Part shown: positions 11,188-15,658 of the stretch, one piece after another
How positions within the stretch are numbered: position 1 is the first letter of the stretch
Layout of the letters: each line of letters starts with the position of its first letter
Source: Eubacteriales bacterium
GTDB lineage: Bacteria; Bacillota; Clostridia; Lachnospirales; Lachnospiraceae
Assembly (NCBI GenBank): GCA_030526265.1
Contig: JAUNDE010000021.1
Span: forward strand, 1-32,903
Reading direction: 5' to 3'
DNA length: 32,903 bases
Made by a program: the position numbers and the translations under genes
Notes under the pieces: model-generated
Databases searched by the model: none
What the model saw: the letters and a program-made list of their open reading frames with translations, nothing else
Told to the model about the DNA's origin: nothing

Positions 11188-11223
11188 CCAAAAATCACTG
11201 AATTTTATTTCAGTGATTTTTGG
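11188..11223 (-). terminator. Pilus operon terminator overlapping the last stop codon
   Basis: A perfect 15-bp inverted repeat (11188-11202 with 11209-11223, CCAAAAATCACTGAA) has a 6-base loop. The TAA stop of the minor pilin (11205-11207) sits in this loop, so the last codons form the 5' arm. The T-rich part is within the 3' arm (GATTTTTGG). Confidence 0.7.
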
Positions 11224-11834
11224 ATTGTAAAAGAATTCAAGCATCGAATGCCAATTACAACAAGAAAAAGCAGGATTCCCATCACATAAAGCCCTGTTTC
11301 TGACGTATCTCCTGTTCTTGGGGTATATTTCTCCATTTTTCCGTTCCCTGCGCTCTCATATCGGTTCTCAAAAATGAGTTCCTCCTGTTTTTCTGACATT
11401 TCTTCATCATACAATGCGTAGGAAACTGCAAATCCGTCCGGATCAGCCTCGCTGTTCATTACCGTAACCAGAAGATTGTACTTGATATCATCATAGGAAC
11501 AGTTTTGATTCGTCCCCTGTTTCTGACGAATGATATAATGGTATACTCCAAGTTCAGAATAAGTGATGTCCGGGAAATTCTTTTCACCGGCACCTGTAAT
11601 GGAAAGACAGCAGACTCCGTCTTCGCTTCCGGCAGGCATAGGAGTATCCTCGTTTTCAGCTTCCATTTCTATGATATATGTTTCGTCCTGTTGAGGTATT
11701 GTTCCGGAAAGAACGACTTTCGCCCTGATTCCTGCTCCGCTTACTTCGGCAGCTTCTGCATCGTTTGTAAAAATCCAAAAACACATTGCCAGTGCACAGA
11801 TTCCTGTCACAATGACTGTCTTATATTTATTCAT
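11205..11834 (-). CDS. Minor/basal pilin, FctB-like, TPRTG sorting signal
   Basis: This 209-residue surface protein has a signal peptide (VIVTGICALAMCFWIF, cleavage likely near AEA-AE at about 29). It has one FctA-type pilin domain (about 35-160) with Lys39 and Asn157 at isopeptide positions and a C-terminal sorting signal: TPRTG at 171-175, a hydrophobic helix and a short tail. The Glu expected in the GxYxYxIxE strand is Gln104. The position after the sortase gene matches streptococcal fctB, the basal subunit that anchors pili to the wall, and an LPXTG-like TPRTG motif fits anchoring by a housekeeping sortase. The start at 11834 has AGGAGA 7 bases ahead; an upstream ATG at 11864 lacks this. 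Confidence 0.8.
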   Translation of the reverse strand: MNKYKTVIVTGICALAMCFWIFTNDAEAAEVSGAGIRAKVVLSGTIPQQDETYIIEMEAENEDTPMPAGSEDGVCCLSITGAGEKNFPDITYSELGVYHYIIRQKQGTNQNCSYDDIKYNLLVTVMNSEADPDGFAVSYALYDEEMSEKQEELIFENRYESAGNGKMEKYTPRTGDTSETGLYVMGILLFLVVIGIRCLNSFTIQKSLK

Positions 11835-11851
11835 AGTACATTCTCCTGATT

Positions 11852-12610
11852 TCATATTTCGCATAATTTCATAACCGCAATGACAACCGTCCTTGCATCC
11901 GTATATTCGGAAGAACAGGTAGACATTGCAAGAAACTGAATGTTCTGATCCTTTTGTCCGGAAAGGCTGCTCAATTGCTCTTTTCTAATATTTTGCGCAT
12001 TATGTTCCAAATACGATACAAAAGCATCTATTTCAGACTGTCCCTTATTTACTTCAAAAATAATCTCATCTGAAGATGCCGCTGTGAGACAGGCAACTAT
12101 TTCCAGATTATAGACTCTGTCCGGTAAGAGCAGCTTTCCTGTCCTGTTTTTTCGGAAAAATTTTTCTTTCTTATAGAGATCCAGATCACCAAACATACTT
12201 CCATTTTCCATGTGATGACCATAAATAAGAGAATAAGCATCCTGAAAAGATCTGTCACAGCGGGCATCCAGAAATATACTGCCTGACAGCGAAAACTCTC
12301 CATAGACGTCCATATTCAGATACTGAAGATTCGAATCTCCCTGCAGCACCGGATCATCGATATTTGTATGATCCAGTGTAAGCCATGCAACAACATCTGA
12401 ATTAATTTCCATTAATTGTTCGAAAGATTCTTTCTCCCCTTCCGGCTTCAGCTCCAGCATATCCTCCCGCACATTTTCTGCAGCTTCATACACCTGATGG
12501 TTATCCCATAAGGCATACATGGAATAACCACCGGCGACAAATATGATAATAATTACAAATAGATTGATCAGAAAATCTGCTGCTCTAATGATATATCTGT
12601 GTATCAACAC
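11852..12610 (-). CDS. Class B sortase, probable pilin polymerase
   Basis: This 252-residue sortase has an N-terminal membrane anchor (about 13-32) and a class B catalytic domain. Active-site residues are His132 in YGHHMENGSMFG, Cys232 in STCSSEY and Arg240 in TDARTVV. Class B sortases usually anchor haem-uptake proteins, but in pilus regions of the streptococcal FCT kind one polymerises FctA. Here it lies between the major pilin (1-base gap) and the minor pilin (17-base gap), the same order, so pilin polymerisation through the ISTG motif is the likely job. No other sortase is in the window. Confidence 0.92.
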   Translation of the reverse strand: MLIHRYIIRAADFLINLFVIIIIFVAGGYSMYALWDNHQVYEAAENVREDMLELKPEGEKESFEQLMEINSDVVAWLTLDHTNIDDPVLQGDSNLQYLNMDVYGEFSLSGSIFLDARCDRSFQDAYSLIYGHHMENGSMFGDLDLYKKEKFFRKNRTGKLLLPDRVYNLEIVACLTAASSDEIIFEVNKGQSEIDAFVSYLEHNAQNIRKEQLSSLSGQKDQNIQFLAMSTCSSEYTDARTVVIAVMKLCEI

Positions 12611-12611
12611 C

Positions 12612-13622
12612 TTAAGAATTGCTTCCGAAGATTCGTTTTCTGTTCAGGAATACGATCAGTCCGGCCGCTGCGGCGAAGAGAACGATGATATATGGAGCAA
12701 TGTCCATGACGATACCGGTTGAGATTCCGATCTCTTTGTTATTCGTAATCTTTACACTGTCTGATGCTGCCTGAATGGTGCCGTTTCCATCATTTGCGGT
12801 TCCGTTACTCTCCGTGTAAACAGCTGCATCATATTCTGTTGAAGTGTAATCGTCCTCAACAACTGAATAGGTTACCCCATAAGGAATATTTTCAAATGTT
12901 ACCGTTTCGCTGTCCTTCAGGTCAATTGTCACTGTGCATGAACCATTGCTCCAGTCATCCGCAGTGATGCTGTATTCTTCATTGTCATCCACGTAAGAAA
13001 TTGTGCTCTTTACCACTTCCCCCTGCGGTGCATGGAACGTAACATCTACGGAGAAATCTTTATTCTTTTCTCCCATGTTACCTGTTACTTCTTTTGTTAC
13101 TGCAAGAGAGCCTGCACAATACAGGTTTGTAAACGCTGTCTTTTTCTCAGAAGAGCTGTTTGCGTCATAGAATGTGACCTGCACCGGCTTTCTCACACCA
13201 TTCACAAATTCCACGAGTACATCCATTTTATACACATTGCTGTCGTAAGTAACTCCGGCAGTACTTCCCTTGACTTCAGCAATATCATATGTATAAATTC
13301 CTACACTTGGCCAGTTTACACTCTCCAGACCAAGAGCAAACGATTTGCTGAGACCTGACGTTGTTGCCGAACCTTCTGAGAACGATTTACTGACCTGAGA
13401 CAGTGTCGGAACTGTCACGCTGCTGTCTTCTCCATATGTGAGTGTTCCGTTCGTGAACGTGAACGCGAATGTCTCTGCAGGATTTTCCGTACTACCGTTT
13501 TGGATTTTATATTCTTTGTTAAAACAAAGCGATGCTGGTTGCTGTCCTGTAGCAAATGCTGTAGCACTCATACTGACAGTCATGGCACATACGGCCAGGG
13601 TTGAAATGATTTTTCTTTTCAT
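12612..13622 (-). CDS. Major pilin subunit, FctA/Spy0128-like
   Basis: This 336-residue pilin has a signal peptide (cleavage likely after AFA, residue 24) and two Ig-like pilin domains (about 30-168 and 172-297). It ends in the sorting sequence GISTGIVMDIAPY with a hydrophobic helix and basic tail (NRKR). Each domain has a Lys-Glu-Asn set for a self-formed isopeptide bond: Lys36/Glu116/Asn166 and Lys177/Glu256/Asn294 or Asn295. These spacings closely follow the streptococcal T-antigen pilin Spy0128, as does Lys160/161 for the intersubunit link. Sortase cleavage would be at Thr302 in ISTG. It lies upstream of the class B sortase. The family call is strong; polymer formation is inferred. Confidence 0.88.
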   Translation of the reverse strand: MKRKIISTLAVCAMTVSMSATAFATGQQPASLCFNKEYKIQNGSTENPAETFAFTFTNGTLTYGEDSSVTVPTLSQVSKSFSEGSATTSGLSKSFALGLESVNWPSVGIYTYDIAEVKGSTAGVTYDSNVYKMDVLVEFVNGVRKPVQVTFYDANSSSEKKTAFTNLYCAGSLAVTKEVTGNMGEKNKDFSVDVTFHAPQGEVVKSTISYVDDNEEYSITADDWSNGSCTVTIDLKDSETVTFENIPYGVTYSVVEDDYTSTEYDAAVYTESNGTANDGNGTIQAASDSVKITNNKEIGISTGIVMDIAPYIIVLFAAAAGLIVFLNRKRIFGSNS

Positions 13623-13679: not shown

Positions 13680-14234
13680 CTATAAACTTCTTCTTCGAAG
13701 GAGCGTAATTACTTTCCCCTCCAGGTCATCTTCTGCAATCACTCCAAATTCTCTGCTGTCTTCTGTCTGAGTTCTGTAGTCGCCAAGAACATAAACACAC
13801 CCTTTCGGTACATGAAACGGATAGTTCATTTCTCCGGCCGGATACGTTGGAAACAGTATCTCGCCCGCTTCTGCCCCTCCGTTAATATACAGTTTCCCAT
13901 TTTCATCCATATTCACCATGTCTGTCCCTATTGCGACGATCCTTCCTGTAAATCGTTCTCCATTCTTTTGATAAGTCACAATATCATTCTTCTGATAATC
14001 TTTCTGCATCCGGTAAATAATAAGCAAGTCCCCATCCTTTACAGCGGGAAACATTCCCTGCCCGGATGCCTGCGTGATCAGAAATACTTTTGTAAAAATC
14101 AGCCATCCGGCTGCAAGCAGCAGTACGATTTTGAGAACGAGGCTTACGTATTGTCTCCGGATACGTCTACATTGATACTGGTCATCACTGTCCATGATTT
14201 TCTGCCCGTATTCTTCCATAACCCCACCTGTCAT
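13680..14234 (-). CDS. SipA-like signal-peptidase-fold protein, catalytic residues missing
   Basis: This 184-residue protein has a single N-terminal transmembrane helix (about 29-53) and the S26 signal peptidase fold: GxxMxP box, GDLLII, KNDIVTY, GRIVAIGTD, NGKLYING and VLGDYRTQTEDSREFG. The catalytic Ser of GxSM is Gly60 (SGQGMFP) and the general-base Lys of (V)KRIIG is Gly97 (FTGRIVA), so peptidase activity is unlikely. Streptococcal SipA, encoded beside fctA and needed for pilus polymerisation, has likewise lost both residues. The gene lies between adhesin and major pilin, as sipA does. Its start overlaps the adhesin stop (ATGA); an internal ATG at 14219 is a possible alternative, with AGGTGG ahead. 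Confidence 0.88.
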   Translation of the reverse strand: MTGGVMEEYGQKIMDSDDQYQCRRIRRQYVSLVLKIVLLLAAGWLIFTKVFLITQASGQGMFPAVKDGDLLIIYRMQKDYQKNDIVTYQKNGERFTGRIVAIGTDMVNMDENGKLYINGGAEAGEILFPTYPAGEMNYPFHVPKGCVYVLGDYRTQTEDSREFGVIAEDDLEGKVITLLRRRSL

Positions 14235-15601
14235 ACATATCTGTGACGGCGGGTAACCGTAAATACAGCGATGCAGACTGCTGTAACTGCAAGGATCAAA
14301 ACAAACGGAAACGAATCCAGCTGCACACTTGTGTTGATCACACCATTTTTTTCATTTGTTACCTGAAATATCAGATCCTGATCAATGGTGCAGGAATTTC
14401 CTTCTGTCCAGTTTGTGTCGTCTGCAGACCATTCGTAAATGGATACGTATCCGTCTGCATCCGCATCTTCCTCAGTAACAGTAAATACTGCACCATCCGG
14501 TATTCCCGTGACCGATACAGCTTCTTCATTTTTCAGCCTGAATGAAATCGTTCCATCCGCATTTACAGTGTATGAATGGTCTTCAGGATCCGTCAGAAAA
14601 AGAATATTTCCGTCAGCATCTTTTACAGTTGCGCCAAATGCAAATGCTTTACTGAGATCACCGAGATTTCCATTCACGATTTTTCGAATGATTACAGCAT
14701 GGCTGACAGAAATCATAACATCTGCTGAAGCCGTTTTCGGGATAACACTCCCGCCAATTACAGCTATGTTAGTCAAAAGTCCGGCAGATGCAGCGTCTGT
14801 CACTTCCGCAATAATGGAATATCTTCTTGTCTCTGAAACATTAAGAGTGATTCCCCTGTCTAAATACAGCACCTGATCCGGAGTCTTCCAGTTCAGGTCA
14901 GACGATCCGTTTACAGATACAATGTTCAGTCCCGATGGAACTTCATCTGTAATATCCACTCCCTGAAGCGGGATTTCACTGTTGTTTGTGATTTCGATGT
15001 CGTACGTAAGCTTATCCCCAATCTTTGCGTTCTCCTGCCCTGCCGTCTTTCGAATCGAATAGTCAATGTCTACTGTAACACTCAGACCGGTGATATCCCA
15101 GCCTCCTGCTGTCGTCTTAATGTCTATCAGAAACTGTTCCTGCAGATTCGTTACAGAACCGGCTTCAATCACAAGCATTCCATACTCAGACTGTAACGTT
15201 TTGTTGCTTCCATCCGGCAGATTTACCGTGATCTCATGCTCCCAGTGATCGGTAGCAGGCATATCGACCTTTGTTCCGTTTACCACCATATACACGATTT
15301 CTTTCAGGTTCGAATTCTTTTGCAGAAAAAGAATCAGATATGCCTGATTATTTTCATCTACAAAGATCCCTCTTACATCAAAATGTGCATTTGTACTCGT
15401 CCCACTGGCATCAAAATAATTTTCAGCCGTATATGTATGAGTATCTCCTTCTGCATACATTTCTACCTGGTTATCCTGCGGCTCCTCTGAAACATCCGAT
15501 GCAAATGCAGCAGATGGATAGATGACGCCAAACAGCGTTATCATCAAAAGCAAGAATGCAACGGATTTTCCAAATCTTTTTTTCTCTTTTTTATTGTTCA
15601 T
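14231..15601 (-). CDS. Pilus-tip adhesin/ancillary pilin
   Basis: This 456-residue surface protein has a signal peptide (cleavage after SAAFA, about residue 35) and an unrecognised N-terminal beta-rich region (about 45-180). A DUF11-like repeat domain follows (about 183-300, TYDIEITNNSEIPLQGVDITDEVP), then a pilin-type domain (about 302-418) with Lys307/Glu377/Asn416 for an isopeptide bond. The C-terminal helix and RRHR tail come after INTSVQLDSFPF, which aligns with the major pilin's ISTGIVMDIAPY but has Ser for the sorting Gly. First-gene position matches streptococcal cpa. The binding target is unknown, and no thioester Cys is seen. The start at 15601 has AGGAGG 6 bases ahead. Confidence 0.82.
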   Translation of the reverse strand: MNNKKEKKRFGKSVAFLLLMITLFGVIYPSAAFASDVSEEPQDNQVEMYAEGDTHTYTAENYFDASGTSTNAHFDVRGIFVDENNQAYLILFLQKNSNLKEIVYMVVNGTKVDMPATDHWEHEITVNLPDGSNKTLQSEYGMLVIEAGSVTNLQEQFLIDIKTTAGGWDITGLSVTVDIDYSIRKTAGQENAKIGDKLTYDIEITNNSEIPLQGVDITDEVPSGLNIVSVNGSSDLNWKTPDQVLYLDRGITLNVSETRRYSIIAEVTDAASAGLLTNIAVIGGSVIPKTASADVMISVSHAVIIRKIVNGNLGDLSKAFAFGATVKDADGNILFLTDPEDHSYTVNADGTISFRLKNEEAVSVTGIPDGAVFTVTEEDADADGYVSIYEWSADDTNWTEGNSCTIDQDLIFQVTNEKNGVINTSVQLDSFPFVLILAVTAVCIAVFTVTRRHRYV

Positions 15602-15658
15602 ACCACTCCTCCTGCCCTGCATATTTTATATATATGCGATCGTATCAAGTGATATGTA

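What the first reader, a model, noticed from the sequence alone, without database searches (positions are those of the whole stretch)
13680..14234. Signal peptidase homologue with both catalytic residues changed to Gly inside a pilus operon
In S26 signal peptidases the nucleophile is Ser in GxSMxP and the base is Lys in (V)KRxxG. Here the codons at 14055-14057 and 13944-13946 encode Gly60 and Gly97, while the rest of the fold motifs are kept (NGKLYING, LGDYRTQTEDSREFG). Streptococcal SipA, needed for pilus polymerisation, is known to have lost the same two residues. A dead peptidase that acts as a pilin chaperone or sortase partner in a gut Clostridium would be worth describing.
Basis: partly seen in the sequence, partly recalled or inferred. 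Interest (0 to 1): 0.72.

Follow-up and report, generated by a model that had tools for sequence, protein, structure and literature searches.

The report
Dead signal peptidase in pilus operon
A gut bacterium carries a signal-peptidase look-alike that has lost its cutting residues and sits in a pilus-building gene cluster; it belongs to the known SipA family of pilus-assembly helpers, here seen as a widespread neighbour of class B sortases.

Summary
The ORF at 13680-14234 (-) is an S26 signal peptidase homologue with Gly in place of Ser (codon 14057-14055) and of Lys (13946-13944). It is the second gene of an operon ordered tip candidate - this gene - FctA-type pilin - class B sortase - small FctA-type pilin, the order published for S. 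pyogenes cpa-sipA-fctA-srtC-fctB. Its nearest solved structure is S. pyogenes SipA (E 3e-22; best active peptidase 1e-9). In a tree built without the two catalytic columns, 64 dyad-less proteins, S. pyogenes SipA included, form one clade (SH-aLRT 98). Dyad loss goes with a class B sortase: 60 of 64 dyad-less S26 genes have one within 3.5 kb, against 1 of 61 Ser/Lys ones. The dyad positions drift and other active-site positions relax, while the scaffold is kept. The protein is most likely a membrane-anchored, non-proteolytic helper that presents pilins to the class B sortase. That mechanism is inferred; no binding step is shown, and a dyad-intact streptococcal homologue is also reported as required for a pilus. 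Novelty: new member of a known kind. Added here: breadth, a conserved C-terminal Arg, an orphan sipA that may act in trans, and mis-naming as 'signal peptidase I'.

The parts
13680..14234 (-). sipA-like gene: S26 signal peptidase homologue without the Ser/Lys dyad, with an N-terminal hydrophobic stretch (alternative start at 14219)
14055..14057 (-). Gly60 codon at the nucleophile (Ser) position
13944..13946 (-). Gly97 codon at the general-base (Lys) position
14231..15622 (-). putative tip pilin/adhesin, 463 aa, DUF11 + DUF7601 domains; C-terminal sorting signal VINTS-V...PF; role inferred (match to NF033396 pilus ancillary protein 1 is 60 bits, under its cut-off of 600)
12612..13622 (-). putative major pilin, 336 aa, FctA (Spy0128-like) + DUF7601 domains; sorting signal GISTG...PY
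11852..12610 (-). class B sortase (GTG start), putative pilin polymerase
   Evidence: TIGR03064 171.2 bits, cut-off 153.75
11205..11864 (-). small FctA-domain protein with TPRTG signal, putative basal pilin

Best explanation
The gene encodes a SipA-family protein: a signal peptidase fold, probably anchored by one N-terminal membrane helix, whose catalytic site has decayed but whose scaffold is kept. Housekeeping signal peptidases (two Ser/Lys S26 genes exist elsewhere in this genome) remove the pilin signal peptides. The SipA-like protein works outside the membrane as a non-proteolytic helper: it holds the pilin, probably near its C-terminal sorting signal, so that the class B sortase of the same operon can cut it and join it to the next pilin. 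The small TPRTG pilin would then be handed to the genome's only other detected sortase for wall anchoring. Shown here: homology, dyad loss, operon, sortase class, clade membership, co-inheritance with the class B sortase. Inferred: topology, pilus formation, peptide holding, sortase partnership.
For: Nearest PDB sequence is SipA 4n31 (3.3e-22), active peptidases 1.1e-9 or worse. Gene order tip candidate-sipA-FctA pilin-class B sortase-small FctA pilin equals the published cpa-sipA-fctA-srtC-fctB order (PMC4049620). Class B sortase within 3.5 kb in 60 of 64 dyad-less S26 against 1 of 61 Ser/Lys S26. Matched control from the same call: among genes with a sorting-signal-like ORF within 3.5 kb, 57 of 58 dyad-less against 0 of 16 Ser/Lys. 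Stricter count (same strand, 3 kb): 47 of 51 against 0 of 54 in the first sample; class sample 12 of 13 against 0 of 7. One clade with SipA, SH-aLRT 98, dyad columns left out. SipA and sortase trees correlate, r = 0.84 over 59 pairs, 0 of 2000 permutations as high. Positions 58, 60, 97, 151 and 157 are Gly, Ser, Lys, Gly, Ser in 62, 62, 62, 62 and 61 of 62 Ser/Lys proteins but in only 29, 14, 0, 33 and 6 of 65 SipA-clade proteins, while Arg98, Asp152, Asp159, Arg161 stay at 64-65 of 65 (60 and 97 define the groups, the other three do not). Own genome: two further S26, both Ser/Lys, and one further sortase. In S. pyogenes SipA is required for polymerisation and its Asp48/Lys83 equivalents are not (PMC4049620). 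In S. suis a dyad-intact SipF beside a class C sortase is not essential for polymerisation (PMC2797073, passages).
Against: No binding between SipA and pilin, sortase or peptides was detected in S. pyogenes (PMC4049620). The published picture outside Clostridia is not a clean split: PMC4049620 says the S. agalactiae homologue appears to have an intact dyad, and PMC7900414 (passages) says the S. agalactiae PI-2b homologue is required for pilus assembly; deletion of S. suis sipF lowered the high-molecular-weight polymers (PMC2797073). SrtB does not require a neighbouring SipA: none of 20 further SrtB loci has a SipA-like S26 (one, L155, has a 21.9-bit S26-like ORF); six of the 20 score 216 bits or more, and two of those six are cut by a contig edge. 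One operon outside the class (L185, genome G923) holds both a Ser/Lys S26 and a dyad-less SipA. L080 lost Lys outside the SipA clade and has no SrtB. The S26 sample was picked by similarity to this SipA, and most Ser/Lys genes in it are not in pilus loci. Co-inheritance of operon neighbours alone gives tree correlation without contact. No structure could be predicted.
Confidence: 0.8

Rival explanations
1. The protein is still a protease that uses other residues, for instance on pilin signal peptides.
For: Box B and the Asp-Ser-Arg box around the old active site are kept; some clade members keep Ser (14 of 65) and Thr130 is a clade-enriched hydroxyl (61 of 65 against 25 of 62).
Against: The Lys is gone in 65 of 65 and no other Lys is conserved at 85% or more. 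Three further active-site positions relax with the dyad. In S. pyogenes no peptidase activity was seen and the Asp48/Lys83 equivalents can be changed without effect (PMC4049620).
Confidence: 0.06
2. A decaying pseudo-enzyme carried along by the operon without function.
For: Free drift at the dyad positions (ten residues at one, seven at the other).
Against: Scaffold residues kept in 63-65 of 65; identity to the nearest same-family genome G140 is 57%, similar to the 53% of the sortase next door to the same genome; no in-frame stop reported for the clade members fetched.
Confidence: 0.04
3. A scaffold that acts on the sortase or on membrane placement of the assembly site rather than on pilins.
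For: SipA and SrtB trees match closely. The most clade-specific conserved residue, Arg180, lies at the C-terminus, 64 of 65 against 9 of 62.
Against: Not separable from the pilin-presenting model with these data; pull-downs with sortase were negative in S. pyogenes (PMC4049620).
Confidence: 0.3

Closest known systems
Streptococcus pyogenes SipA/LepA (FCT-2, -3, -4 pili; PDB 4n31, 4k8w)
   Same: S26 homologue, no Ser/Lys dyad (Asp/Gly there, Gly/Gly here), same operon order, class B sortase, same clade
   Different: Host is a gut Lachnospiraceae relative; the highest identity of 4n31 to any row of the tree is 45%; pilus and function untested here
Clostridium perfringens VR-10B (NE pilus) signal peptidase
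   Different: Its dyad state is not mentioned in the passages read; its sequence was not compared here
Streptococcus suis SipF (srtF cluster)
   Same: Signal peptidase gene in a pilus cluster
   Different: Dyad reported intact, class C sortase, not essential for polymerisation though polymers were fewer without it (PMC2797073, passages)
Housekeeping signal peptidase I (own genome C26, two genes)
   Same: S26 family
   Different: Ser/Lys kept, outside the SipA clade, on another contig than either detected sortase

Membership tests
SipA (pilus signal-peptidase-like protein) | Sequence homology to S26 signal peptidases | tested here: met
   PF10502 68.3 bits, TIGR02227 96.4 bits
SipA (pilus signal-peptidase-like protein) | Catalytic Ser and Lys replaced | tested here: met
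   Gly60, Gly97
SipA (pilus signal-peptidase-like protein) | Gene between tip pilin and FctA pilin in a pilus operon | tested here: met
   the tip role of the upstream gene is inferred from domains and place
SipA (pilus signal-peptidase-like protein) | Pilus sortase of class B | tested here: met
   TIGR03064 171.2 bits over cut-off 153.75
SipA (pilus signal-peptidase-like protein) | Groups with S. pyogenes SipA in a tree without the dyad columns | tested here: met
   64-row clade, SH-aLRT 98 (quick method, no bootstrap, no AU test)
SipA (pilus signal-peptidase-like protein) | Single N-terminal membrane anchor, domain outside | tested here: inconclusive
   Hydrophobic stretch at about residues 31-53 read by eye; no topology program run
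SipA (pilus signal-peptidase-like protein) | SPase fold with a peptide-binding cleft | tested here: inconclusive
   Sequence alignment to 4n31 over residues 55-183; structure prediction not available
SipA (pilus signal-peptidase-like protein) | Required for pilin polymerisation, no peptidase activity | not testable with these tools
   needs experiment
Signal peptidase I (active enzyme, S26A) | Ser-Lys catalytic dyad | tested here: not met
   although TIGR02227 would name it so

The most novel reading that the evidence does not exclude
SipA is an old, broadly used cofactor of class B pilin polymerases: a decayed protease domesticated once as a substrate holder, inherited with its sortase across Clostridia and Streptococcus, able to serve several pilus loci from elsewhere in the genome (G178), with its working surface marked by Arg180, Thr130 and Asp69 rather than the old active site.
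Probability: 0.45. Interest if true: 0.55.

Novelty: new member of a known kind. Interest (0 to 1): 0.36.

Why it matters
What SipA does has been open since 2008 (date of the first SipA paper, Zahner and Scott, seen only as a reference entry). A clade of 65 dyad-less proteins with a strong link to class B sortases turns a streptococcal curiosity into a rule that can be tested in gut commensals, and points to specific residues (Arg180, Thr130, Asp69) and to a natural trans arrangement. It also shows that a standard annotation model scores these proteins as signal peptidase I (10 of 10 tested), so such pilus operons are easily overlooked.

Tried and rejected
Alternative dyad: Lys90 is kept in 0 of 4 and Ser57 in 2 of 4 close relatives; no conserved Lys in the clade; Thr130 left open. 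Pseudogene: rejected on scaffold conservation. Housekeeping peptidase: rejected, two Ser/Lys copies lie elsewhere. Plasmid or phage origin: plasmid matches listed are 25-33% identical and mostly annotated lepB, their dyads unchecked; the one close 'phage' hit (54.7%) looks like a bacterial contig. Class C sortase loci as a contrast: class C sortases over the model's cut-off stand near Ser/Lys S26 in L095 and L066, but my motif filter also gave false positives (L175 a glycerol-3-phosphate dehydrogenase, L177 a response regulator), so I made no count from it. The sorting-signal pattern and the 'CWSS' filter are heuristics of my own. Sampling limits: S26 loci were chosen by similarity to this SipA, mostly in rank order with listed rows skipped; L098 was dropped as a duplicate of L007. 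The rank cut between SipA-like and ordinary S26 is not clean (L170, Ser/Lys, outranks L171, dyad-less). The tree was built by the quick method only; no AU test was run.

Full report
Observation. The protein is an S26 signal peptidase homologue by Pfam and NCBIfam. NCBIfam's TIGR02227 'signal peptidase I' scores it 96.4 over a cut-off of 47, so automatic annotation would call it an active enzyme.

Operon. On the minus strand the genes run: 15622-14231 (DUF11 + DUF7601, tip candidate), 14234-13680 (this gene), 13622-12612 (FctA + DUF7601 pilin), 12610-11852 (class B sortase, TIGR03064 171.2 bits, cut-off 153.75), 11864-11205 (small FctA protein with TPRTG). [quoted passage not shown] pyogenes FCT-2 to FCT-4. 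PMC3019223 (passages) and PMC7900414 (passages) describe the S. pyogenes polymerase of these pili as class B. The order here is the same. The genome has two other S26 genes, both Ser/Lys, and one other Pfam sortase.

Nearest known protein. Among PDB sequences the best matches are SipA 4n31 (3.3e-22) and the chain named LepA, 4k8w (4.3e-22), which aligns as the same sequence; signal peptidases follow at 1.1e-9 and worse. S. pyogenes SipA has Asp and Gly at the two positions, no detectable peptidase activity, and is essential for polymerisation of the S. pyogenes pilins expressed in L. lactis (PMC4049620: abstract, passages and whole Discussion read).

Relatives. P0001 matched 169 of 397 family genomes at 1e-10. 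I fetched 100 stretches (one is the own genome's C26), added four loci and the window, and dropped one duplicate, which left 105 S26 proteins. Of these 54 are Ser/Lys and 51 lack one or both residues. A class B sortase on the same strand within 3 kb occurs at 47 of 51 dyad-less and 0 of 54 Ser/Lys genes. The four exceptions: L005 (contig ends after 168 bases), L079 (pilin and sortase lie on the opposite strand next to it), L119 (an orphan gene, see below), L080 (an S26 outside the SipA clade that lost only Lys). A search of 391 genomes of the class gave 13 SipA-like proteins in 12 genomes of 8 other families, all of which I fetched: 13 of 13 are dyad-less and 12 of 13 have a class B sortase in the locus (the 13th, L168, ends at a contig edge). 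Seven further S26 taken from the ranks around and below them are Ser/Lys and 0 of 7 have one. Pooled, within 3.5 kb on either strand: 60 of 64 against 1 of 61. Restricted to genes with a sorting-signal-like ORF within 3.5 kb, a fairer contrast: 57 of 58 against 0 of 16. Fourteen sortases from dyad-less loci, the window's included, were checked with NCBIfam: TIGR03064 (class B) is the best model in 14 of 14, over its cut-off in 9 (window, L099, L109, L120, L042, L060, L162, L165, L106) and under it in 5 (L077, L046, L169, L124, L166).

Tree. With the two catalytic columns blanked, 126 rows gave one clade of 64 dyad-less proteins including S. pyogenes SipA, SH-aLRT 98; of the dyad-less rows only L080 lies elsewhere. 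With three further rows the labels still need just two changes. The Ser/Lys proteins L068, L091 and six copies of genome G149 branch beside the clade at support 81 in the first, midpoint-rooted tree. Arg180 occurs in 64 of 65 SipA-clade proteins (the other row has a gap there) and in 9 of 62 Ser/Lys proteins; of those nine I checked five by name (L185, L068, L091, L072, L047), all from this neighbouring set or L185. My reading, not tested by a rooted analysis: a dyad-intact peptidase with this C-terminus was the ancestor, and the Lys was lost once.

What changed and what did not. In the clade (65 proteins, S. pyogenes row not counted) the Lys position is Gly 45, Arg 9, Ser 4, Ala 4, others 3; the Ser position is Asp 24, Ser 14, Gly 9, Glu 6, others 12. 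Other active-site positions (58, 151, 157) are relaxed too. Arg98, Asp152, Arg154, Asp159, Ser160, Arg161 and Gly164 are kept in 63-65 of 65. That is the pattern of a kept scaffold with a dispensable active site. It agrees with the published finding that the Asp48 and Lys83 equivalents of SipA can be changed without visible effect (PMC4049620).

Co-inheritance. For 59 loci with both genes on one strand, SipA and SrtB tree distances correlate at r = 0.84; the highest of 2000 permutations was 0.14. Operon neighbours would show this without touching each other. It does show the pair moving as a unit: genome G323 carries two such loci that fall in different subclades (L038, L101).

Results against a strict rule. 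Twenty further SrtB loci, chosen because no SipA had been found beside them, hold no SipA-like S26 (L155 has a 21.9-bit S26-like ORF); six score 216 bits or more, two of which are cut by contig ends. In G178 two class B sortase-pilin loci (L140, L141) have no sipA, while a D/G sipA (L119) sits alone among housekeeping genes elsewhere, an arrangement that suggests action in trans. In G923, outside the class, one operon holds a Ser/Lys S26 ahead of the tip gene as well as an S/R SipA. At phylum scale 3 of 398 genomes matched at 1e-37, own genome included. Outside Clostridia the papers are mixed: PMC4049620 says the S. suis and S. agalactiae homologues appear to keep the dyad; in S. suis, beside a class C sortase, deletion did not stop polymerisation but lowered it (PMC2797073); in S. 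agalactiae PI-2b the homologue is said to be required for assembly (PMC7900414).

Mechanism. Housekeeping peptidases process pilin signal peptides; SipA, anchored in the membrane, holds the pilin or its sorting signal for the class B sortase, which lacks the lid of class C enzymes (idea of PMC4049620). A pattern of my own, T(G/S/A) followed by (D/N)..P(Y/F), found a downstream pilin signal in 27 of the 64 loci; all 27 read TG. Such a signal is a plausible ligand. Every binding step remains unproven.

Novelty. Searches of an open-licence library showed SipA described in streptococci and a C. perfringens operon with signal peptidase and class B sortase (PMC8088525, passages), but in their listings I saw no survey of dyad-less signal peptidases across gut Clostridia. 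Most subscription papers are not in that library. The finding is a new member of a known kind; the breadth, the Arg180 mark and the orphan are the parts I did not see in print.

Change on checking. Confidence in the best explanation went from 0.82 to 0.80 after adding the S. agalactiae report and the unresolved Thr130; the other odds moved by 0.01 at most.

Noticed in passing
L119 (G178:C1) with L140, L141: An orphan dyad-less sipA among housekeeping genes, while two class B sortase-pilin loci in the same genome lack sipA: possible action in trans.
   Followed up: partly
L185 7902-8468 and 11443-11997 (G923): One class B pilus operon with both a Ser/Lys signal peptidase and a dyad-less SipA, plus two class B sortases.
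   Followed up: partly
window 14231-15622: The tip protein's sorting signal reads VINTS where 12 of 13 upstream proteins found by the pattern have TG; the upstream protein in L180 also lacks TG.
   Followed up: partly
L180 (MT836522.1): A record labelled Bacteriophage sp. from human faeces carries the whole pilus operon with an S/G SipA; it looks like a mislabelled bacterial contig.
   Followed up: partly
L053, L077, L082, L117, L123: SrtB proteins with 190-245 aa after the catalytic Cys motif, placed 3-43 bases after sipA (in L117 the ORFs overlap); L077's matches the FILTED surface-protein domain model.
   Followed up: no
TIGR02227 on window and L099, L109, L120, L042, L162, L165, L054, L171, L119: NCBIfam's signal peptidase I equivalog scores 10 of 10 dyad-less SipA-clade proteins tested over its cut-off, so they would be named as active enzymes.
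   Followed up: yes
L080 6017-6556: An S26 protein outside the SipA clade with Ser/Arg instead of Ser/Lys and an intact GDNR...DSR box, beside a sortase-like gene with the motif LFTC.
   Followed up: no
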